Positions 9,056 through 35,934 of a DNA stretch of 43,575 nt are shown in pieces. Each line of letters opens with the position of its first letter. Positions within the stretch are counted from its first letter, which is position 1. Source of the stretch: a virus; IMG/VR virus record IMGVR_UViG_3300021061_000009, positions 1 to 43,575 of that record; one strand, 5' to 3'. Both the position numbers and the translations under genes were made by a program. The notes below the pieces were generated by a model that was given only the letters and a program-made list of their open reading frames with translations, was not told the DNA's origin and ran no database searches.

Positions 9056-10111
9056 TCAGGTGTGAGCCAGAAATTTACTCATTCTGATCGCTGACTTTTT
9101 AGCCAGCATTTGAGCGCCCTTTTGCGCTATCACGACCGAGGCGTTTGTGTCTGCGTGATCTTTGTGACCGCATGAAGCACAAACAAACTCATCACGACTG
9201 CGCCGACTCTTTTTATCCACAATTCCACACTTAGAACAAGTCTGAGAAGTCTGATAAGGATTAATATCCAGTATCAAAACCCCGTTTTCCTTGCCTAAGA
9301 TATGGAGTCGGTTAGCAAAGTAGCTTCTTGCCCATCCTTGAAGCTTTCCGCTTCTTAGATTTGCTAGTCGCTTCGGGCTTTCGACAGCAATAGCAGACAA
9401 AGACCTTTGAGAACGTCTCAAGACTGTCTTTGCTTCGCGGTCGAGAATCTGTTTAATAAGCGTTTTTACTTTTGAAGAAACTTTATGCCCTTGACGGCGA
9501 CGCTCCGCAGTTCTTATTCTGTCTGTACGGATGGCTCTTTTTAGCCCGTGGCCAAGGTAACGATCAGAGCATGATACAGAGTGTTTCAAGCCGACATCAC
9601 AGCCAAGAACATTGTTGAATTTCTTCATTCGACTTGTTTCTTTTGAAACAAAAACAATCGCGTAAAGGTTTCCGTTAATGATTTTCAATTCGCAATTAGG
9701 AATTATTTTCCAACCATTCTTTAAAGCCCCGTTTAACGCTTTATGTGATTTGGCCGGAAGGGCGACAACGCTTCGCTTCGTCCAAAGATTTGATACGGAA
9801 ATCCAATAGTCGAACGCGCCCTTTTTGGCGGGGTAGATCATTCCAGGACAACCAAAATCAGGCTTATAAGGAACATTTGTTTTTATGCCTTCTTTCTGAA
9901 GTGCGTGAAGGCTTCTGACCACACCAAAACATTTTTTTTGCGCTTTGTCGGCAAGGTCGCCCATTCCAACTGTGCTTATGTGCCGGTTCCCATTAAAGAA
10001 TAGCTTTCCGATAAAGCATTCAGAAAACGCTTTGAAGCGGTTAAGCGTATAAAGCGCCGTGTCGGTCTTTACCTTGTTTCCGTATACTTTTAGCTTATAG
10101 GAGCGGTTCAT
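9056..10111 (-). CDS. tnpB: TnpB / OrfB-family RuvC-type nuclease, no partner transposase
   Basis: A 351-aa protein of the IS200/IS605 accessory family, RNA-guided DNA nucleases related to Cas12. The RuvC motifs look complete: GCDVGLK (Asp172), AVESPKRL (Glu244) and HADTNAS (Asp321), with the zinc finger CSKCG...CASCG (Cys292, 295, 311, 314) between the last two and the typical NPYQTSQTC segment. It is somewhat shorter than the usual roughly 380-420 residues. No TnpA gene and no recognisable insertion-sequence ends flank it. It is embedded in the early operon with junction motifs on both sides. TATAAT lies 9-14 bases before the ATG, and no Shine-Dalgarno is seen. Whether it is domesticated or a remnant is open. 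Confidence 0.9.
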   Translation of the reverse strand: MNRSYKLKVYGNKVKTDTALYTLNRFKAFSECFIGKLFFNGNRHISTVGMGDLADKAQKKCFGVVRSLHALQKEGIKTNVPYKPDFGCPGMIYPAKKGAFDYWISVSNLWTKRSVVALPAKSHKALNGALKNGWKIIPNCELKIINGNLYAIVFVSKETSRMKKFNNVLGCDVGLKHSVSCSDRYLGHGLKRAIRTDRIRTAERRRQGHKVSSKVKTLIKQILDREAKTVLRRSQRSLSAIAVESPKRLANLRSGKLQGWARSYFANRLHILGKENGVLILDINPYQTSQTCSKCGIVDKKSRRSRDEFVCASCGHKDHADTNASVVIAQKGAQMLAKKSAIRMSKFLAHT

Positions 10112-13310: not shown

Positions 13311-13739
13311 TCAAAGTTTCTTCAGTGTCACCTTGACGTACTCTTCCTCAGATTGAACCTTCTTAGCTTCAAACTTAAAGAACTGCGAATCATCGAAGCC
13401 GCACTTCTCAGCCACCGTATCGCACACAAGCTTAATCAAATTCTGCAAATCCAACTTCCGAAACGCCGCGTTCTTAAAGAACCAATTCCCGTAAAACTCC
13501 AACTCAATCCCAAGCGGCTCCATCTTCTCCGTCTTCCAACACGGCACATATTGCTTACCCTTTGACTTCCAGAGCCTTGCTTCCGGTCGCAGCTCAACTC
13601 GTTTCTGCGCATAGATGATCTGGTAAAGCGAATTAACGCTCGGAGGCAGGCCAGGAATCCTGAAGGTGATGGCTTCCTTTTTGGACTCTCCGGCCTGTTC
13701 CGAGACAGCAGGGGAGGGGATTACGCTGCTTTCTTCCAC
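13311..13739 (-). CDS. rusA: RusA-type Holliday junction resolvase
   Basis: A 142-aa protein of the RusA endonuclease family, which resolves branched DNA before packaging. Signature segments are FRIPGLPPSVNSLY (about 26-39), the basic RPEARLWK patch, and the acidic core RKLDLQNLIKLVCDTVAEKCGFDDSQF (about 93-119; split as LDLQNL and FDDSQ), which carries the metal-binding Asp residues. It overlaps the preceding ssDNA-binding candidate gene by 19 nt, fitting a recombination operon. Confidence 0.88.
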   Translation of the reverse strand: MEESSVIPSPAVSEQAGESKKEAITFRIPGLPPSVNSLYQIIYAQKRVELRPEARLWKSKGKQYVPCWKTEKMEPLGIELEFYGNWFFKNAAFRKLDLQNLIKLVCDTVAEKCGFDDSQFFKFEAKKVQSEEEYVKVTLKKL

Positions 13740-14265: not shown

Positions 14266-15039
14266 TTAGGCCGTTTTCTTTCCGTTGTTGATTGCGTTAA
14301 TAATTGCCTGATACGAAACGTTCTCTACGATTTCAGGAAGGCCATATCTGTTCTTGGCATCTCTCTGTCCGCCTTTTTGACATCTAGCAACGTACTTGTA
14401 CTGGTTATCTCCCGTACGTTTTTTATCAAGGTAGATGCTCGCAGAGAACATTCCCGCAACCTTTTCTCTAAACCCTCCGAGTATGTTTGGTACCACCGGA
14501 GTCGTTTTGTCAGCTTTGCGTTCCATCGCCTCATCGCCTTCAACTTGCTCATGACAAGTGACAATGACATTGCCTGGAAAACTAAGCAAACGAGTAAGAG
14601 TAAACTGATACAGCCAACGAGATAGAGTTCCATACATGCCCCTGGTGTCTAATGCGCCACTATTGGTTACGAGTTTTTCGTATTTATTGATATAGAGCCA
14701 CCTGTTCTCACTTAGGAAGGAGATGTTGTCGAGTACGAGAGTTTCGATTTTTCCTTCCTTTGCGTCCTTATGCGCTTGGTTAAGAAACCCTTCTAATCGC
14801 TCAAAGGTCTGCTTAATATCTTCCGCAGGCGAGGGGATGAACTCATCTGCGTACACAAGATTTCCCAACAAAGGTGCGTTAGATCGAGCCGTATCAAGAC
14901 CGTTGGGCTCGGTTCCCGCATACGCCACTTTAGGGAACGTAAACGAGAAATAAGTCTTGCCCGTACCCGTCCCGCCATTCGCCAGGATTTTAACCGTCTG
15001 CTTCGCTTGCCCATTTAGGATGTCCTCACGAGTAATCAT
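14266..15039 (-). CDS. Sak4-like AAA_24 recombination ATPase
   Basis: A 257-aa RecA-fold ATPase of the phage single-strand annealing type. Walker A GGTGTGKT is at residues 22-29, Walker B-like ETLVLDN at about 98-104 and a later TRLLSFPGNVIVTCHE strand. It likely works with the neighbouring ssDNA-binding candidate and the Cas4/RecB-like nuclease in recombination-dependent replication. It overlaps the upstream gene by ATGA. GCCTAATAA ends it inside a junction motif. Confidence 0.85.
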   Translation of the reverse strand: MITREDILNGQAKQTVKILANGGTGTGKTYFSFTFPKVAYAGTEPNGLDTARSNAPLLGNLVYADEFIPSPAEDIKQTFERLEGFLNQAHKDAKEGKIETLVLDNISFLSENRWLYINKYEKLVTNSGALDTRGMYGTLSRWLYQFTLTRLLSFPGNVIVTCHEQVEGDEAMERKADKTTPVVPNILGGFREKVAGMFSASIYLDKKRTGDNQYKYVARCQKGGQRDAKNRYGLPEIVENVSYQAIINAINNGKKTA

Positions 15040-15248
15040 TCGTTAAAATCTCCTACATCTTGGCGATTATCTTCTGGAAGATTCTCTAACACTTCAGGAT
15101 AAACTCCGACTGTTGCAACGCGGATTTCTCCTTTTCCTTTTGAGCCATCAACTTTACGTACTCCATGAATTGATTGCTCAACTTGCCATTTCACCCAGTC
15201 TTCATCTCCAACGTATTCAATAACTCTTAACACTCTGACCTGTCTCAT
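15036..15248 (-). CDS. hypothetical protein in the recombination operon
   Basis: A 70-aa, beta-rich protein (MRQVRVLRVIEYVGDEDWV...) coupled by ATGA on both sides between the nuclease and the Sak4-like ATPase. The location suggests a recombination accessory; no motif recognised. Confidence 0.7.
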   Translation of the reverse strand: MRQVRVLRVIEYVGDEDWVKWQVEQSIHGVRKVDGSKGKGEIRVATVGVYPEVLENLPEDNRQDVGDFNE

Positions 15249-16081
15249 TTCTGCACTTGCTCCTTCTGACTGTTATTAGTCCTATACAACGCTTCCTTAA
15301 CCTGCTCATCATCTGCCGCCGTACACAACTCGTGAAAATCGCAGTAGCTGCACATCGAGTTGTATGCTTTAGGCCAAATATTATTCTCAATATTGAATGC
15401 AACTGTCCGCATCCACGCTTGGTCTGATTTCTTCCAAGCCTCAATCTGAGCCGCAGACCGATTAAACAACTGGCGCTCAAACCGTTGCCAATACCCCGCA
15501 GGCTCTCCCTTGTATGCCCGCTGTCTATGCCCAACCGCAATGCCGTTAATGTAAAACCCCGCACACTCACCGTACTTCTGCTGCGCCCAGGCCGTGTAGC
15601 GCGTGATCTGCGCTGACAACTCGAATTGCTTCCAGTACGTATAGGAGAATGTCTTGCCGGTCGTCTTGTGATCCCACAAGTAGAGGGAGCCAGAAGGGAG
15701 GTGCTTTGCGACCAGATCGACCGTCATTTCGTGCATTCCTTCGTTCTCAACTTCAGACTTAACTTCCGCGTCTATGATCTGCCAGTCCTTATCCTGCTCC
15801 TTGTAGTAGGCGATATACGCCTCAAGCGCTTTTTCAGCACCTTCAATCGTTTTCGCTAAATCATCTGGCTTTAAATCTTCCGGGTAAATCGTCTTAAAAC
15901 CTGCCATCATCTCGGCAAACGAAGCGCCTCTGTAGTACAGTTCAAGCGCCTTGTGCATTGCTGCGCCCCAAGTCCGATCATTCGCTGATTCCGGCTGATC
16001 GATCTTCTCAAGGCGGTCTATGTACGTCAGCTTGTACTTGTAAGGACACGAATTAAACGCCTGAATCTCGCTGTATCTCAT
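15245..16081 (-). CDS. Cas4/RecB-like PD-(D/E)XK nuclease
   Basis: A 278-aa nuclease of the RecB/Cas4 type. It has SCPYKYKLTYIDRLE at the N-terminus (Cys12), the core TVDLVAKH...LYLWDHKTTGK with the catalytic Asp and Asp-x-Lys (about 130-152), the Q-rich helix QFELSAQITRYTAWA and a C-terminal CSYCDFHELC cluster that with Cys12 could hold an iron-sulfur cluster. It likely makes ends for recombination with the Sak4-like protein. The start is coupled to the 26-aa membrane peptide gene. Confidence 0.85.
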   Translation of the reverse strand: MRYSEIQAFNSCPYKYKLTYIDRLEKIDQPESANDRTWGAAMHKALELYYRGASFAEMMAGFKTIYPEDLKPDDLAKTIEGAEKALEAYIAYYKEQDKDWQIIDAEVKSEVENEGMHEMTVDLVAKHLPSGSLYLWDHKTTGKTFSYTYWKQFELSAQITRYTAWAQQKYGECAGFYINGIAVGHRQRAYKGEPAGYWQRFERQLFNRSAAQIEAWKKSDQAWMRTVAFNIENNIWPKAYNSMCSYCDFHELCTAADDEQVKEALYRTNNSQKEQVQK

Positions 16082-16864: not shown

Positions 16865-17094
16865 GACGCTAACCCATCCTTAAACAGCCGGTTAATCTCA
16901 TCCTGCGTCAATCGCTGTTCTCCGGGCTGCATCAACACATCATCCGTCACGTTCGCATACCCGTAACTCGTCTGCCCGTCCTCGAACCGAATCCAATACT
17001 CAATGCGTTTCGATACGCTGTCATAAACGACCTTCTCCACATGCCCCACCTTATGAATTACAACCTTGTCTCCGATCCTGTACGTCTGGTTCAT
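16861..17094 (-). CDS. hypothetical protein, SH3-like barrel possible
   Basis: A 77-aa protein. MNQTYRIGDKVVIHKVGHVEKVVYD with later YWIRFEDGQ has the spacing of a small beta barrel (KOW/SH3-like), with a helical tail. Coupled to the lysozyme-like gene by ATGA. Confidence 0.65.
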   Translation of the reverse strand: MNQTYRIGDKVVIHKVGHVEKVVYDSVSKRIEYWIRFEDGQTSYGYANVTDDVLMQPGEQRLTQDEINRLFKDGLAS

Positions 17095-17810
17095 TTCACA
17101 CTCTCCTTTTTGGTTAACTTGTTGTAGCGCTCGATATAAGCCCTCGTAATGCGAGATGGCTGTCTACCCTTGATAGAGCGCAGAAACCCCTCGTTATAGG
17201 CTCTAATGCGAAAATAAGGGGTGTCTGGCAGGGAATAATGAGCGAGTAAGGCTGGAATACGCTTATTGAGGTACCAGTCTGCAACTAAACGCGCTTTGAC
17301 TGGCTCAAGCATGTCCTTATGGGTAAAGGACGCCTTATTGAACTTGTTGTAGTCCTGAACTACGGGAGGATGGATCTGGAACAGCCCGAGCGCCTTGCCG
17401 CCGTCTCCGACAGCCGAAGCGCGACCGCTTGACTCGATCTGAGCTATAGCAGAGAGGTCTATCTGCTTATGATCTGCGATATTGTGGGCATAATCAGAAT
17501 GGGCAGAAGAACCTGTCAGATTACTTTCTGAATATACCGGGATAAACGAACTTACGAGGGAGAGTCCTACAACTAGGAGGAAACTACGAAATGCTCTAAC
17601 TACATACGGTATATACACATACGACTCATTTTGAGTCCTATAATGTATACTAGCAGCCTTAATTAAATTGATCTGAGCATATTTAGTATACACAGGGGAA
17701 TGCGTCCTATTTTCCATTTTACGAATCACCTTATCGGTCTGTATAGTCATATTATGCTCTCGTGTTCCGAATATATCGGCATATAGTCTGAAAACTTTAG
17801 CGGTCCTCAT
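17091..17810 (-). CDS. SLT-type lysozyme / transglycosylase (endolysin candidate)
   Basis: A 239-aa peptidoglycan-cleaving protein. The C-terminal half has the SLT fold signature AIAQIESSGRASAVGDGGKALGLFQI with the catalytic Glu126. Residues 76-92 form a hydrophobic helix (FLLVVGLSLVSSFI) ending in a small-residue VYSES segment, so it may be membrane-anchored or exported like signal-arrest endolysins. A 75-residue cytoplasmic part before this helix is unusual. The ATG at 17717 has the best Shine-Dalgarno (AAGGTG), so the true start may be there. The gene follows the XRE regulator by 3 bases and shares its promoter at 18148-18176. Confidence 0.8.
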   Translation of the reverse strand: MRTAKVFRLYADIFGTREHNMTIQTDKVIRKMENRTHSPVYTKYAQINLIKAASIHYRTQNESYVYIPYVVRAFRSFLLVVGLSLVSSFIPVYSESNLTGSSAHSDYAHNIADHKQIDLSAIAQIESSGRASAVGDGGKALGLFQIHPPVVQDYNKFNKASFTHKDMLEPVKARLVADWYLNKRIPALLAHYSLPDTPYFRIRAYNEGFLRSIKGRQPSRITRAYIERYNKLTKKESVK

Positions 17811-30495: not shown

Positions 30496-31449
30496 ATGGC
30501 AAACGAATTATTCATCCCGTCCACGATTGATGCGTCGCTTGCGACCTCAATCGCCGATTACTCGAAGACAGCGACGGATAACGTATACAACTCTAATGTC
30601 GTGCTTAAGATTTTGAATGAACGCAAGCGCCTCATTAACGGAGGTGTATCTGTTGTCTACACGCTCATTAAATCTGACCAAAACAACGGCGGTTTCTATC
30701 TCGGCGCAACTCAGCTGAATACAACTCAGTCTGACGCTGAGACGCTTGTTGAGTTTCGCTGGCAGAACCTGTACGAGCCGATTCAGCTAACCCGCGATGA
30801 GGAACGCATCAACTCCGGCGATGAACACAAAATCATCGATCTTGTTGGCGAGAAGGTTCAGCGCGCAGAGTTAGCCGTTTCGAAACGCGCAGAGCAAGCC
30901 ATGTCCACTCCGACTGCTAATGCCAACAACCTCGCTGACCTCGAAACAATGGTCAATACAGGAACCTTCGGCACTATCGCAGGCGGAACTGACACGTTCT
31001 GGCAAGCGACCGTGACGACTTCAGGCTCTTTCGCAGCTCAGGGTTTAACCGACCTTGCTACGGCTGAGTACGCTGTCGCATCAAGCGCCACAAGCGATAA
31101 CGTCACAATCCACATCACGAATAAGACGAACTTTCAGCGTTTTGAAGCGACCCGGCTTCCTTTGGAGCGCATCTCCAACGGCAACCTGACCGCTAATGCT
31201 GGTTTCAAGAACCTGACCTTTAAAGGCACACCCGTCGTGTACGGAAACTTTATCGGTTCCGGTCTCTGGTTCGGTCTGAACATGAACTATGTGGACTATA
31301 ACGTTGACAGCGAGACCGACTTTGCGATGACTCCGTTTATGATGCCTGTGAACCAGACTGCTAAAGTCGCGTTCATTCTGCATCGTACAACCGGACCTGT
31401 CACAAACAACAGGCGGCGTCAATTTAAACTGCAATCTATCACAGCGTAA
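30496..31449 (+). CDS. major capsid protein
   Basis: A 317-aa protein of HK97-fold type by position and composition: N-arm (residues 1-35), then a spine region with RLINGGVSVVYTLIKSD and the E-loop-like LYEPIQLTRDEERINSG, a helix DLVGEKVQRAELAVSKRAEQAM and a C-terminal beta region. AGGAG precedes the start. It is likely the most abundant virion protein. Confidence 0.88.
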   Translation: MANELFIPSTIDASLATSIADYSKTATDNVYNSNVVLKILNERKRLINGGVSVVYTLIKSDQNNGGFYLGATQLNTTQSDAETLVEFRWQNLYEPIQLTRDEERINSGDEHKIIDLVGEKVQRAELAVSKRAEQAMSTPTANANNLADLETMVNTGTFGTIAGGTDTFWQATVTTSGSFAAQGLTDLATAEYAVASSATSDNVTIHITNKTNFQRFEATRLPLERISNGNLTANAGFKNLTFKGTPVVYGNFIGSGLWFGLNMNYVDYNVDSETDFAMTPFMMPVNQTAKVAFILHRTTGPVTNNRRRQFKLQSITA

Positions 31450-31461
31450 GAGGAGGCATAA

Positions 31462-31734
31462 ATGGCAATCGCAACCTCTAACGTTAAGCAGCAGAGCGGC
31501 GGAAGTCTGAACTTCTTAGCGGGCGACTGGTCAAGCGCGGTGGGTGATGATAGCGGAACTGTGACTGTGGGCGGAGCGCGTGTTTATTTCGCTCAGTTTT
31601 CAGCGCAGGATTCGGTCACTGGCGAGCTTGCGAGCGTTCCCTGGACAGCTTCAACCTCTGGCGCTTTGACGACCGTAACTTTCTATCCGCATGACGCGGT
31701 AAGTAGCGGAAGATTTCTTATCGCATACGCATAA
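31462..31734 (+). CDS. small head/decoration protein
   Basis: A 90-aa, Gly/Ser/Thr/Val-rich, beta-type protein (SGTVTVGGARVYFAQFSA...). It has a strong GAGGAGG site right after the capsid gene, suggesting high expression, as for a capsid cement protein. No exact family assigned. Confidence 0.7.
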   Translation: MAIATSNVKQQSGGSLNFLAGDWSSAVGDDSGTVTVGGARVYFAQFSAQDSVTGELASVPWTASTSGALTTVTFYPHDAVSSGRFLIAYA

Positions 31735-31804
31735 CTCAATCAATCGGCCTGGGACTGGAGGCGCGGTAATCCGCGTCCAAGTTACAGCCTAAAGGAGATT
31801 CAAA
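31735..31804 (+). promoter_or_regulatory. gap with small hairpin before second decoration gene
   Basis: 70 bases containing GGCGCGG-taat-CCGCG (about 31760-31776), probably an mRNA hairpin or weak attenuator; no T-run follows. AAAGGAGA lies before the next ATG. Confidence 0.4.
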
Positions 31805-32257
31805 ATGCAGATTCAGCAACTTAATCGTACTAACTCCGAAGTGGTGAAAGTCCTCTTCAAAAACGTAGATGGCGGTGGCTCTATCACGACCGGTATGGGC
31901 GTTTCTTGGTGCCAAGCTGGCGCTTCCATTGATGCGTTGTCTGCCGTGTTATATGCAGCAGCCAATCAAGAAGGTTTCATCGGCGTGTCCGAATCTGACG
32001 TTCCCATTAACGGGTACGGATTTGCGACATGCTGGGGTCTTGCTAACTCTGTGCTCATTTCGCACGTTGGCAGCTCCATCACGATTACGGCGGGAGACTT
32101 CTTGAAACCGGGCGCAGTGCCTGGAACTTTCTTCAGCTCGCTCACTGATCAAGCGGTCAGCACGCTGTTCTATCGTTACGTCATTGCAGCTTCCACTCCC
32201 GTTGCAGTTTCGACTATGGCTCAGTCGTATTGCAAGGGTTTAGTGCGCGCAATCTAA
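31805..32257 (+). CDS. capsid decoration-like protein
   Basis: A 150-aa protein, beta-rich with Gly/Ser/Ala (VLYAAANQEGFIGVSES, SSITITAGDFLKPGAV). The pattern of a surface head protein with a 'GDFLKPG' turn is common in phage decoration proteins. Function by position. Confidence 0.7.
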   Translation: MQIQQLNRTNSEVVKVLFKNVDGGGSITTGMGVSWCQAGASIDALSAVLYAAANQEGFIGVSESDVPINGYGFATCWGLANSVLISHVGSSITITAGDFLKPGAVPGTFFSSLTDQAVSTLFYRYVIAASTPVAVSTMAQSYCKGLVRAI

Positions 32258-32267
32258 GGAGAATTAT

Positions 32268-32498
32268 ATGGCCTGGTGGGACGGTTGGACTGAAGAAGAC
32301 GTAGTGAAGTTTGAACTTACTCCAACCTCCCACCTTGTCATAGATGGGAAAGAGATTCAAGTGCATCGCTGTGAAACATGCGGTGTGATCGTTACGAATA
32401 ATCCTGAGCATTTACCAAAGCACGGCGGCCACAAAGTCAGGCAGCCGGTTTGTATTAAACGAGATGAAGTGGAACTAATCATTAAGGGGGCATTGTGA
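32268..32498 (+). CDS. zinc-finger protein before the glycosyltransferase cassette
   Basis: A 76-aa protein with CETCG and a later H-x-x-H and Cys. It overlaps the first glycosyltransferase gene by 4 nt (GTGA). May be a regulator or cofactor of the cassette; this is a guess. Confidence 0.65.
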   Translation: MAWWDGWTEEDVVKFELTPTSHLVIDGKEIQVHRCETCGVIVTNNPEHLPKHGGHKVRQPVCIKRDEVELIIKGAL

Positions 32499-33268
32499 GT
32501 CAAGAAGAAGGAAAGGTTGTAAAGGTAGCGATTTGTATTCCGAACGAGGGTTCTCCTCCGTGCAAATCCTATACGAACCGCTTAGAAAACTTCTTCTATC
32601 TTGGAACGCTGCAAGAGCGTGGCATTCAAGAGAAACGTAATCCTCGTTTTGAATTCCACTTTATTGATTTAGGTCGCATCTTCACACCGCTTGCGCGTGA
32701 AGAGGCTGCAAAGCTCGCGCTCGAAATCGAAGCCGATTACCTCTTCATGATTGATGATGATATGACTTGTCCCAACGAACTTTTTGAGAGGCTGTATGCG
32801 CACCAGGTTGATATGGTGGCTCCTCTTGCTTTCACGCGCAACTTTCCTCATAAAGCCGTCATTTACGAGATTGAAGACGGATGGGACCCCGTAAGCCAAA
32901 CTCCCTACTTCATTAATAGGCACGTAGATAAGTACCCGAAAGACTGCCTCATCGAATGTGATGCGGTTGGGTTCGGCGCAGTCCTTATTAATATGAAGGT
33001 AGTTCGCGCAATTCCGGCTCCCCGATTCATGTGCTCCTCTGGCACCGGCGAAGACGTTCTTTTCTGCCACAAAGCCCGCAAAGCTGGCTTCCGCGTGTTT
33101 ATGGACACAGCAACGAAGCTTGGTCACTTGTCGCACCCTATAGAAGTTACAGAAGCTTACGTTGAGAAGGTGCGTAAAGAAATGAACTATCAAGACTCTA
33201 ACGCAATGGGTCATAAGCGAGAACCCATGAAGTGGGAAGCGGGTTCCGCTCATCTGGTGCTCGGATGA
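32495..33268 (+). CDS. GT-A type glycosyltransferase
   Basis: A 257-aa protein with the metal-binding DDD motif MIDDDMTC (Asp87-89) after a beta strand, and GTGEDVLFCHKARKAGFRVFMDT with the acidic catalytic-like motif. These are features of GT2-like glycosyltransferases. The GTG start is coupled. First gene of a three-gene sugar cassette. The sugar and the acceptor are unknown; a virion protein is the likely target because of the location. Confidence 0.85.
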   Translation: MSQEEGKVVKVAICIPNEGSPPCKSYTNRLENFFYLGTLQERGIQEKRNPRFEFHFIDLGRIFTPLAREEAAKLALEIEADYLFMIDDDMTCPNELFERLYAHQVDMVAPLAFTRNFPHKAVIYEIEDGWDPVSQTPYFINRHVDKYPKDCLIECDAVGFGAVLINMKVVRAIPAPRFMCSSGTGEDVLFCHKARKAGFRVFMDTATKLGHLSHPIEVTEAYVEKVRKEMNYQDSNAMGHKREPMKWEAGSAHLVLG

Positions 33269-34575
33269 AGCCGGTTCTTTCTATCATTATCCCGACTTGG
33301 AATAATCCGCAGTTCCTCAATCCGTGCATTGCTTCCATCATGAAGACAAGCGTTATTGATAGTGGAATTGCAGAAATCATCGTTGTCAATAACGGAGATC
33401 AACCCATTCAGGAGTTTCCCGGTCTTCGCGTTATTAAGACTGGACAAAACCTTGGTTGGGAAGGCGGTCTTAAAGCCGGGCTTGAAGCGTCCGATGCGCC
33501 TTTTGTCTGCTTCCAGAATGATGATACGTTCATCCCCGTCGTGTCTCAGGCTCTTTTTTACTCGCGTCTGCTCAGTAATTTTAGAGACCCTAGCGTTGGA
33601 GCTGTAGGTCCATCAACAACTACGGCAGCCGGTCTCCAGTCAATCTATCACCCCAATATACCCGTTACTTTTTCAGAACTACGATGGATGATTTTCTTTT
33701 GCGTCATTGTGAGGCGTTCTGCTTTAGATGCGGTCGGAGGTATTGATGCGTCCCTTCCTGGCGGTGATGATTTCGATCTCTCTATTCGTCTCCGTAAAGG
33801 CGGCTACAGACTCGTTTTTGACCCAAGTGCTTTTATTATTCATCACGGTTTCAAGACAGGAGAGCGTGTTCGAGGAACATCTGATCGTGCGGGTGGCTGG
33901 AACTCCAAAGAAATGAGTGAAGACACAAACAAAGCGCTTATCCGCAAACACGGCTTTAAGGAGTTTTTTACATCTATTTCGCAGCAGCTCATAACTTATT
34001 GCAATATGAACACAGTTCCAGAAGACATTGAAGGAAACTTAATTCGCTCCCTCGTAACGCCTGAAGATAAAGTCCTTGAACTTGGCTGCGGATTTCGCAA
34101 AACAGTTGAGCAGTCTGTTGGAATTGATCGTGTTCCAAAAGGCGAAAAGATTCCGCTTCTCCCATACTCAAATGAACGCTCTGTAGCTGATATGGTGGCC
34201 GATGTCTCAAAACCGCTTCCGGTAAAGGATTCCTCATTTGATGTCGTGATTGCGCGGCATATTCTTGAACACATCATCAACCCTGTAGAAACACTTCGTA
34301 ACTGGATGAAAGCTCTCCGTCCTGGAGGAAAGCTAATTATCGCTTGTCCTGATGAGGAAGTAACATCTGGGATTCCGCTTTCCTTCGATCACCTTCACGC
34401 TTTCACGATGTCGAGTCTTAAATCAATCGCTGAAACGCTTGGGCTTAGTCAAACATTTGCGCAATCGACAGGGAACGGAATCAGTTTCGTGTCCTGCTTT
34501 GAGAAGCAGGTTGATATTTCGTGTCCTTCCACATGGGTCTCAACAACCGGAGAGGAAGTAACATGCTCAGAATAG
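33265..34575 (+). CDS. GT2 glycosyltransferase fused to SAM methyltransferase
   Basis: A 436-aa two-domain enzyme. Residues 1-235 are GT2: LSIIIPTWNNPQFL at the N-terminus, CFQNDDTF (DxD-like), and PGGDDFDLSIRLRKGGYRLVF. Residues about 255-425 are a class I methyltransferase: motif I KVLELGCGF, then FDVVIARHILEHI and LRPGGKLIIACPDEE. Coupled by ATGA to the preceding gene. A sugar transfer plus methylation in one chain is suggested, e.g. capped or methylated glycans. Confidence 0.88.
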   Translation: MKPVLSIIIPTWNNPQFLNPCIASIMKTSVIDSGIAEIIVVNNGDQPIQEFPGLRVIKTGQNLGWEGGLKAGLEASDAPFVCFQNDDTFIPVVSQALFYSRLLSNFRDPSVGAVGPSTTTAAGLQSIYHPNIPVTFSELRWMIFFCVIVRRSALDAVGGIDASLPGGDDFDLSIRLRKGGYRLVFDPSAFIIHHGFKTGERVRGTSDRAGGWNSKEMSEDTNKALIRKHGFKEFFTSISQQLITYCNMNTVPEDIEGNLIRSLVTPEDKVLELGCGFRKTVEQSVGIDRVPKGEKIPLLPYSNERSVADMVADVSKPLPVKDSSFDVVIARHILEHIINPVETLRNWMKALRPGGKLIIACPDEEVTSGIPLSFDHLHAFTMSSLKSIAETLGLSQTFAQSTGNGISFVSCFEKQVDISCPSTWVSTTGEEVTCSE

Positions 34576-35591
34576 CCGTTTGGTATGAGTCTCAACTTGG
34601 CAGAAATGACGGAAATCCGCTTTACGTCGATTCGTTCTTGCAACGCACACAACATTTCTGCGACGTAATGCTGCGCCGAAACCAGAACAAGTCTCTGATT
34701 CGAGCCTTCCCAAACTCCAAGAATCTATTAGACCCGCGCGCTGAAGAAATGGCGAAATGGATTCTTGAGAACTTAGATTCAGACGGCATTGAAGTTGTGC
34801 ATCTGCGTCCTCAAGGAAATGAATTCAAGCAATATGGTCAGTTTGATATGCACGTTTGGGTTGATTGGGGAGAAGACGGACTAACAGGAGTCCTGCCCTA
34901 TGAATGCTCATTCCCGTCAGGTGCTCCAATCGTTTATTGGGCGTCAGATACTCATTTGGGCTATGACTATCGCCTAAGCGTCGCAAAGAAATCTGATCTC
35001 GTATTCTGCGCTCAGAAGGATGCGGTTGAGCGTATGAAACAAGACGGCTTGACTGCTCCCGTCTACTGGCTGCCTCACGCTTTCGAGCCCTTGGCCTATC
35101 CTAAATTCAACATGGCTTCAAAGAAATATGATGTCGCGTTCGTGGGTCATGTCAATTCGGAGAATCGCTTGGAATCCTTGGACCGTCTTTTCCGAGAATT
35201 TCCAAACTTTTTCTTTGGGCAACGCAGATTTGAAGCCGCTAGTGAGATTTTCGCAAAGTCACGCATCTCGTTCAATGTAGCCATGAAAGATGATGTCAAT
35301 ATGCGCTGCTTCGAAATTATGGGTTCCGGCAATTTCCTCATGACTGACCGCATCTCCTCCATTGAAGACATCTTCGTTGACCGTAAACACTGCGTTCTTT
35401 ACGACAACTTAGACGATCTTGTTCTGAAGGTTCGCTATTACCTGGAGCACGAAGAAGAGAGAGAAGCGATTGCGAAATGTGGATATGAATACGCCATGCA
35501 GAAACACACAATTTATCACAGAGTTCTCGAAATGTTTAATCAAGCCAAAGCGAATGGACTAATCAAGGAGGCTATTCATGCAAGGAGTTGA
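34563..35591 (+). CDS. GT-B type glycosyltransferase (CgeB-like)
   Basis: A 342-aa protein; start at 34563 with GGAGAGGAAG upstream. The C-terminal part has SRISFNVAMKDDVNMRCFEIMGSGNFLMTD, an Arg/Phe/Glu pattern of glycosyl transferase family 1/CgeB, then the helix REAIAKCGYEYAMQKHTIYHRVLEM. It overlaps the preceding gene by 13 nt and the next gene begins inside it. Third enzyme of the sugar cassette. Confidence 0.82.
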   Translation: MLRIAVWYESQLGRNDGNPLYVDSFLQRTQHFCDVMLRRNQNKSLIRAFPNSKNLLDPRAEEMAKWILENLDSDGIEVVHLRPQGNEFKQYGQFDMHVWVDWGEDGLTGVLPYECSFPSGAPIVYWASDTHLGYDYRLSVAKKSDLVFCAQKDAVERMKQDGLTAPVYWLPHAFEPLAYPKFNMASKKYDVAFVGHVNSENRLESLDRLFREFPNFFFGQRRFEAASEIFAKSRISFNVAMKDDVNMRCFEIMGSGNFLMTDRISSIEDIFVDRKHCVLYDNLDDLVLKVRYYLEHEEEREAIAKCGYEYAMQKHTIYHRVLEMFNQAKANGLIKEAIHARS

Positions 35592-35934
35592 GATTTATAA
35601 GAAGCAGCAGGGAACAGCAGAGGCAGCCAACGGAGCAGTTGACGCTTCGGTTATTGCTGCGCCTGGAGCTGAAAAAAAGCTGCGCATCAAGAAAGCAATC
35701 GTGCAAGTAACGGTCGCGGCGGTTGGAGGAGGCGGTGAAGTTGCTCTTGAAGATGGAGCTGGCGGAACTCGCTTCTTTGAAGCTGATGCAGATGCGGTTG
35801 GAGTTTACTTGGTGGACTTTGGAGACGAAGGCTACGACTTGTCCGCAAACACTGTTCTTAACGTAACCGTTGACGGCGCAGCTACAACGCAAGCAACAGC
35901 TCGTTGCACCGCAATCGCAGTGATTCTGCCATAA
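35578..35934 (+). CDS. hypothetical virion protein
   Basis: A 118-aa protein with strand-rich Ala/Val/Gly composition (VQVTVAAVGGGGEVALEDG). AAGGAGG precedes the ATG inside the glycosyltransferase gene. Likely a head or tail surface protein. Confidence 0.7.
   Translation: MQGVEIYKKQQGTAEAANGAVDASVIAAPGAEKKLRIKKAIVQVTVAAVGGGGEVALEDGAGGTRFFEADADAVGVYLVDFGDEGYDLSANTVLNVTVDGAATTQATARCTAIAVILP

What the first reader, a model, noticed from the sequence alone, without database searches (positions are those of the whole stretch)
32268..35591. Glycosyltransferase-methyltransferase cassette in the middle of the virion operon
Three consecutive, overlapping genes (GT-A, GT2 fused to a SAM methyltransferase, GT-B/CgeB-like) lie between capsid decoration genes and tail genes, preceded by a zinc protein. 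Late, coupled expression with virion genes suggests sugar decoration of a capsid or tail protein, possibly with a methyl cap, rather than modification of host surface or DNA. I do not know of a described phage pathway with this exact architecture.
Basis: partly seen in the sequence, partly recalled or inferred. Interest (0 to 1): 0.6.

Follow-up and report, generated by a model that had tools for sequence, protein, structure and literature searches.

The report
Sugar-coating module for phage capsid decoration
Three phage genes for sugar-adding enzymes (one fused to a methyl-adding enzyme) are inherited together with the gene for a protein that probably studs the outside of the viral shell, and move between otherwise different phages as one unit, so the virus very likely sugar-coats that protein; a previously unlisted structured RNA sits just before the unit.

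Summary
A soluble GT-A, a GT2–SAM-methyltransferase fusion and a GT-B/CgeB-like enzyme overlap in one operon (32495–35591) between head and tail genes, with catalytic motifs conserved. "Zinc protein" is weak: CxxC occurs in only 10 of 42 homologs.

The acceptor can be narrowed. The gene before the cassette (31805–32257) is a predicted capsid decoration protein; its AlphaFold model matches Pam3 and T1 decoration proteins and the phi29 head fibre. Across 53 viral contigs, decoration, GT-A, GT2 and GT-B identities form one block (r 0.73–0.81) and terminase, portal and major capsid protein another (r 0.88–0.94); between blocks r is 0.33–0.55. Window and contig L001 share 79% of the decoration protein but only 29% of the capsid protein. 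The modelled GT-A resembles protein-modifying transferases (COLGALT1, LH3, polypeptide GalNAc-transferases) and STIV A197. Best reading: glycosylation of the decoration protein, with an optional methyl cap. No glycan has been shown.

Virion glycosylation by GT plus MT clusters is known (mycobacteriophages; Che8 gp108 is also a GT2–MT fusion), so this is a new variant. New here: the decoration-linked exchange unit, and a strongly covarying leader RNA (31733–31800), absent from Rfam.

The parts
31733..31800 (+). Structured leader RNA of the decoration gene (covariance-model match; its 3' end includes the Shine-Dalgarno AAAGGAG)
   Evidence: Model R1, 48.5 bits, E 7e-12 (the window is one of the 26 sequences the model was built from); 18 pairs, 14 with compensatory double changes; covariation 0.646 against 0.189 shuffled. 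In this copy the outer helix P1a looks lost; inner helices are kept.
31805..32257 (+). Predicted capsid decoration protein (150 aa), proposed glycan acceptor
   Evidence: AlphaFold pLDDT 85.6; Foldseek PDB hits are decoration/cement/head-fibre proteins; co-inherited with the GTs
32268..32498 (+). Small Cys/His protein (76 aa), function unknown; usually lies between decoration gene and GT-A
   Evidence: Identity correlates with the cassette block r 0.57-0.64; CxxC in only 10/42 homologs; similar short Cys-rich ORFs also follow the decoration gene in some loci without GTs
32495..33268 (+). GT-A glycosyltransferase (257 aa), proposed to attach the first sugar to protein
   Evidence: PHROG 1574/12406; AlphaFold pLDDT 91.4; closest folds STIV A197, COLGALT1, LH3, GalNAc-transferases
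33265..34575 (+). GT2 glycosyltransferase fused to a class I SAM methyltransferase (start ATG 33265; ORF opens at 33232)
   Evidence: PF00535 E 1.5e-13, PF08241 E 4.5e-11; MT domain missing in some relatives
34563..35591 (+). GT-B / CgeB-like glycosyltransferase (start ATG 34563; ORF opens at 34521)
   Evidence: PF13524 E 1.3e-24; conserved GRNDGNPLY and DWGED motifs
30496..31449 (+). Major capsid protein (context; upstream block, not part of the exchange unit)
   Evidence: PHROG 9953 E 5e-30; r 0.94 with portal, 0.47 with the decoration protein
31462..31734 (+). Small protein between capsid and decoration genes (context; boundary region)
   Evidence: r 0.49 with capsid protein, 0.26 with decoration protein
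35578..35934 (+). Downstream small protein of unknown function (context; outside the unit)
   Evidence: Present in 9 of 53 contigs, identity not correlated with the cassette (r -0.27 to 0.12)

Best explanation
The cassette is a dedicated virion-protein glycosylation pathway whose main substrate is the capsid decoration protein encoded just before it. GT-A puts the first sugar on Ser/Thr (or another side chain) of the decoration protein in the host cytoplasm, using host nucleotide sugars; the GT2 domain and the GT-B enzyme extend the chain; the fused methyltransferase O-methylates a sugar and so may cap it. Decoration gene and enzymes form one translationally coupled unit, swapped between phages of different head lineages, so the capsid surface and its sugar coat change together. 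SHOWN: gene content, overlaps, conserved catalytic residues, predicted folds, co-inheritance, absence of membrane segments. INFERRED: acceptor identity, order of steps, sugar types, methyl cap, benefit (shielding from proteases or adsorption traps, or binding of surfaces).
For: Co-inheritance: decoration-GTA/GT2/GTB identity correlations 0.78/0.78/0.81 over 53 contigs against 0.52/0.55/0.45 for capsid protein-GTs; partial correlations 0.71-0.76 (Mantel p 1e-4) against 0.13-0.33. The boundary falls between capsid and decoration genes although these lie closer together than decoration gene and GT-B. Window against L001: decoration 79%, GT-A 62%, capsid 29%, portal 19%. In capsid-gene-baited loci: decoration+GT 29, decoration without GT 5, GT without decoration 2 (both with another post-capsid protein, 'alt277'), neither 24. 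Fold of decoration protein and of GT-A. Ser/Thr kept in GT-linked decoration proteins (T28 98%, S41 95%, T93 97%) and absent at these positions in six homologs without GTs. The slot carries other sugar enzymes in relatives: second methyltransferase, GT4-type GT, DegT aminotransferase. Virion glycosylation precedent: Che8, Corndog, Myrna (PMC12363180, PMC11600133).
Against: No mass or glycan data. Five capsid-baited loci carry a (divergent) decoration homolog without detected GTs, so the protein can exist unmodified. Co-inheritance of neighbours can come from linkage alone, although linkage predicts a stronger capsid-decoration tie than seen. The Ser/Thr contrast rests on six divergent, uncertainly aligned sequences. 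Foldseek E-values for the decoration protein are only 3e-3 to 1e-2 (TM 0.5-0.6).
Confidence: 0.7

Rival explanations
1. The enzymes glycosylate another virion protein (major capsid or tail protein), as in mycobacteriophages, and the decoration gene is only a linked passenger.
For: In Che8, Corndog and Myrna the reported substrates are capsid and tail tube proteins (PMC12363180, PMC12619734). The cassette lies in the virion operon. Every full cassette mapped with its upstream flank follows a related capsid gene.
Against: GT identities follow the decoration protein, not the capsid protein; the one downstream gene tested (35578) is not linked.
Confidence: 0.2
2. The enzymes modify host surface polysaccharide (Gtr-like serotype conversion or superinfection exclusion).
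For: The GT2 domain is nearest by sequence to bacterial surface-glycan transferases of solved structure, such as a GalNAc(5)-diNAcBac-PP-undecaprenol glucosyltransferase, with a weak GtrB PHROG hit E 0.027.
Against: No membrane segment in any of the three enzymes (maximum 19-residue hydropathy 1.55); no GtrA-like gene found among the ORFs scanned; virion operon; strict tie to a decoration protein.
Confidence: 0.05
3. The enzymes glycosylate phage DNA.
For: Phage GTs often act on DNA (general knowledge; PMC12619734 cites this).
Against: No modified-base synthesis gene among the ORFs scanned; location in the virion operon; GT-A fold closest to protein-acceptor enzymes.
Confidence: 0.02

Closest known systems
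Mycobacteriophage virion glycosylation (Che8 gp108-110, cluster F; Corndog, cluster O; Freeman et al. 2023)
   Same: Phage-encoded GTs plus a methyltransferase; Che8 gp108 is a GT2-MT fusion (Methyltransf_24/TylF); three GTs downstream of an O-methyltransferase in cluster O (PMC11600133); acts on virion proteins.
   Different: Che8 genes lie near the end of its genome, away from the structural genes on the left arm of this phage group (PMC11256854 for a relative); Che8 proteins do not match the GT-A or GT-B profiles, only a trace match to GT2; reported acceptors are capsid and tail tube, not a decoration protein; different MT family.
Mycobacteriophage Minerva (Omegavirus, same genes as cluster J) genes 13-19
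   Same: GT gp14 is a homolog of GT-A (E 1.4e-17) directly after the capsid gene, followed by a methyltransferase and further GTs.
   Different: Cluster J capsids apparently have no surface decoration proteins (PMC3706429); MT and GTs are separate genes; annotation only, acceptor not tested in the sources read.
PBCV-1 A064R (chlorovirus)
   Same: GT, GT and SAM methyltransferase work together to build and methylate the end of a capsid glycan (PMC9614988).
   Different: One three-domain protein, eukaryotic virus, N-glycan on the major capsid protein.
STIV A197 (archaeal virus)
   Same: Closest solved fold to the GT-A model (E 1.5e-9, TM 0.67 by target); possibly glycosylates the coat protein (PMC10551542).
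   Different: Unrelated virus; no GT2-MT or GT-B partners described in the passages read.
Capsid decoration/cement proteins (Pam3, T1, phi29 gp8.5 base, HFTV1)
   Same: Fold of the 31805-32257 product and gene position after the capsid gene.
   Different: No meaningful sequence match in the PDB or any in GenBank phages; I found no report tying one of them to a GT cassette.

Membership tests
Phage virion-glycosylation cluster (mycobacteriophage type) | Phage-encoded soluble glycosyltransferases with intact catalytic motifs | tested here: met
Phage virion-glycosylation cluster (mycobacteriophage type) | Methyltransferase in or with the cluster | tested here: met
   PF08241 in the GT2 fusion; Che8 gp108 likewise a fusion
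Phage virion-glycosylation cluster (mycobacteriophage type) | Sequence homology to the Che8 enzymes | tested here: not met
   Che8 gp108-110 against GT-A and GT-B profiles E >= 0.098; GT2 profile against gp109 E 0.0028 at 6 bits
Phage virion-glycosylation cluster (mycobacteriophage type) | Glycan on a virion protein shown by mass spectrometry | not testable with these tools
   No experiment possible
Capsid decoration protein | Decoration/cement fold | tested here: met
   Top Foldseek PDB hits, probability 1.00, TM 0.5-0.66, E 3e-3 to 1e-2
Capsid decoration protein | Gene next to the capsid gene in the virion operon | tested here: met
Capsid decoration protein | Present on the virion surface | not testable with these tools
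   No virion available
Gtr serotype-conversion cluster | Membrane-anchored GtrB and flippase GtrA | tested here: not met
   No membrane segments in the GTs; no such gene among scanned ORFs
DNA-hypermodification GT pathway | Modified-base synthesis gene in the genome | tested here: not met
   None among scanned ORFs; some short ORFs were not scanned
PBCV-1 A064R type | GT-GT-MT in one polypeptide | tested here: not met
   Only GT2 and MT are fused
Rfam family (leader RNA) | Match to any of 4227 covariance models | tested here: not met

The most novel reading that the evidence does not exclude
A self-contained, exchangeable capsid-surface unit: leader RNA + decoration protein + its own glycosyl/methyltransferases, swapped among phages with distantly related head proteins, with the RNA (a new structured class) controlling expression of the decoration-glycan operon or serving as the conserved exchange point.
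Probability: 0.4. Interest if true: 0.75.

Novelty: new variant of a known kind. Interest (0 to 1): 0.6.

Why it matters
It turns 'phages carry glycosyltransferases of unknown target' into a specific prediction, enzymes and acceptor in one transferable block, and offers over 50 natural combinations to test. If right, phages re-coat their shells by swapping a decoration protein together with its glycosylation pathway, which bears on virion stability, adsorption and antibody recognition. The leader RNA is a well-supported new structured RNA whose role can be tested directly.

Tried and rejected
Rfam search for the leader RNA: nothing at gathering score; only chance hits at E up to 10. Decoration protein and GT2-MT against 50,697 phage records: none for the decoration protein; a weak 45%-coverage hit for GT2-MT. 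Genome-contig scan with the decoration alignment: no relative; with the GT-B alignment one contig, itself carrying capsid gene and full unit and binned with a Nitrososphaeraceae MAG, so no safe host inference. PDB sequence search for GT-A, GT-B and decoration profiles: no meaningful match. Freeman et al. 2023 is not held, so its findings are cited through later papers. Terminase family PF03237 not found in the window; terminase identified by PHROG 38 instead. Host-surface and DNA targets considered and set aside (see rivals). N-glycosylation sequons in the decoration protein: one in the window protein and at least one in 74% of homologs, not decisive. No tRNA.

Full report
OBSERVATION. The window is a virus record of 43,575 bases. 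Between the major capsid gene (30496-31449, PHROG 9953) and downstream structural genes lie a GT-A (32495-33268), a GT2-methyltransferase fusion (to 34575) and a GT-B of the Glyco_trans_1_2/CgeB kind (to 35591). Homolog alignments and the sequence place the starts at GTG 32495, ATG 33265 and ATG 34563; genes overlap by 4, 4 and 13 bp. No + strand promoter-like site was found between 30300 and 36700 and terminator-like hits are at chance level. The 'zinc protein' label is weak, since CxxC is kept in only 10 of 42 distinct homologs.

CONSERVED UNIT. Scans of IMG/VR with the decoration, GT-A, GT-B and capsid proteins gave loci that reduce to 146 sequence groups together with the fetched phage records. 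The order capsid - (small protein) - decoration (31805-32257) - (small Cys/His protein) - GT-A - GT2[-MT] - GT-B recurs in more than 50 groups. 47 groups have all four enzymatic domains and 8 lack only the MT. Loci baited with the capsid protein, so without selection for the other genes, split 29 decoration+GT, 5 decoration only, 2 GT only (both with a different post-capsid protein, alt277), 24 neither (nominal Fisher p 1e-9, contigs not independent). Divergent decoration homologs in the 24 could be missed by the profile.

THE UNIT MOVES SEPARATELY FROM THE HEAD GENES. Over 53 contigs pairwise identities give two blocks: terminase-portal-capsid (r 0.88-0.94) and decoration-GTA-GT2-GTB (r 0.73-0.81), with 0.33-0.55 between blocks. 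The partial correlation of each GT with the decoration protein, given the capsid protein, is 0.71-0.76 (p 1e-4, Mantel); with the capsid protein, given the decoration protein, 0.13-0.33. Window and L001 share 79% of the decoration protein but 29% of the capsid protein, 19% of the portal and 25% of the terminase. Conversely, close capsid relatives (L009, L010, L011 and L164-L166, 54-62% in the capsid protein) carry alt277 in place of the decoration protein and lack the cassette, with a single distant GT-A in two of them. Linkage alone would predict a closer capsid-decoration tie than decoration-GTB tie; the opposite is seen.

FOLDS. The decoration model (pLDDT 85.6) matches capsid decoration, cement and head-fibre proteins of Pam3, T1, phi29, HFTV1, FCWL1 and phage BB1 (E 3e-3 to 1e-2, probability 1.00). 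The GT-A model (pLDDT 91.4) matches STIV A197, COLGALT1, LH3, mimivirus R699, Mnn9 and polypeptide GalNAc-transferases, most of which act on protein or glycoprotein. None of the GTs has a membrane segment. No flippase, modified-base or nucleotide-sugar gene was seen among the ORFs scanned.

CANDIDATE SITES. In GT-linked decoration proteins Ser/Thr is kept at T28 (98%), S41 (95%), S86 (95%) and T93 (97%); in six homologs without GTs the positions of T28, S41 and T93 are not Ser/Thr. The sample is small and the alignment distant; this is a lead.

VARIANTS OF THE SLOT. Relatives add a second methyltransferase (L007), a GT4-type GT with DegT aminotransferase (L229) or a radical SAM enzyme with an MT-like ORF (L235), as expected for a glycan-diversity locus.

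LEADER RNA. Just before the decoration gene lies a structured RNA (window 31733-31800) found in 29 sequence groups. On 26 aligned copies RNAalifold gives 18 pairs, 14 with compensatory double changes; 90.7% of cells pair against 66.6% shuffled, and covariation is 0.646 against 0.189 +/- 0.019 (0 of 500) and 0.08-0.13 for slid partners. The structure was derived from the same alignment, which favours it in these controls, but the margin is very large and single-sequence folds agree. It matches no Rfam family. A pattern scan of all IMG/VR viral contigs gave 58 stretches; those scoring 39 bits or more with the model lie directly before a decoration gene of this family, the rest score under 17 bits. 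The pattern covers only the G-C variant of one pair, so the scan is not exhaustive. In 1.1 Mb of fetched loci the model hits before decoration genes, apart from weak hits. 23 of the 53 full-cassette groups carry it, with capsid identities to the window from 26% to 77%. Its position next to the Shine-Dalgarno sequence suggests translational or mRNA control; a role as exchange point is equally open.

KNOWN SYSTEMS. Mycobacteriophages Che8, Corndog and Myrna glycosylate capsid and/or tail tube with their own GTs (PMC12363180, PMC12619734, PMC11256854); cluster O has three tandem GTs downstream of an O-methyltransferase (PMC11600133). Che8 gp108 is a GT2-MT fusion, so the fusion is not new. Minerva gp14 is homologous to GT-A and sits directly after the capsid gene. 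PBCV-1 A064R joins two GTs and an MT on a capsid glycan (PMC9614988). The present case is therefore a new variant: different enzymes, GT-B partner, and a decoration protein carried in the same exchange unit. A literature search for decoration-protein glycosylation by phage GTs in the held library found no such report, which covers open-licence papers only.

VERDICT. Observation confirmed; interpretation supported and sharpened to the decoration protein (confidence 0.7). Acceptor, sugars, methyl cap and benefit are untested.

Noticed in passing
window 31733-31800: New structured RNA with strong covariation in the 5' leader of the decoration gene; no Rfam match; found only before this gene family in the scans made.
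   Followed up: yes
window 9056-10111 (-): 351-aa protein with a Cas12f1-like/TnpB nuclease domain (PF07282 E 1.5e-15; PHROG 506 transposase E 1.7e-27).
   Followed up: no
L009, L010, L011, L164-L166: Close capsid relatives carry a different ~260-277-aa post-capsid protein (alt277) in place of the decoration protein; L010 and L011 have a single distant GT-A after it, L164 an MptE-like ORF (PF01973, below cut-off).
   Followed up: partly
L229:9624-10823; L011:614-1597: DegT/DnrJ sugar-aminotransferase genes in the slot (L229) or upstream of the portal gene (L011), suggesting that some relatives make their own amino-sugars.
   Followed up: no
L235:8873-9706: Radical SAM/SPASM protein beside a methyltransferase-like ORF and a GT-A in the same slot.
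   Followed up: no
L006:9955-10437: HNH endonuclease inserted between capsid gene and decoration gene (PHROG 5046 E 3.9e-15).
   Followed up: no
L300: Contig with capsid gene and full unit binned in a Nitrososphaeraceae (archaeal) MAG; could be mis-binning or a host hint.
   Followed up: partly
window 17091-17810 (-), 14266-16081 (-), 13311-13739 (-): Transglycosylase SLT domain, AAA_24 and PDDEXK_1 proteins, RusA resolvase: genes on the opposite strand from the virion operon.
   Followed up: no
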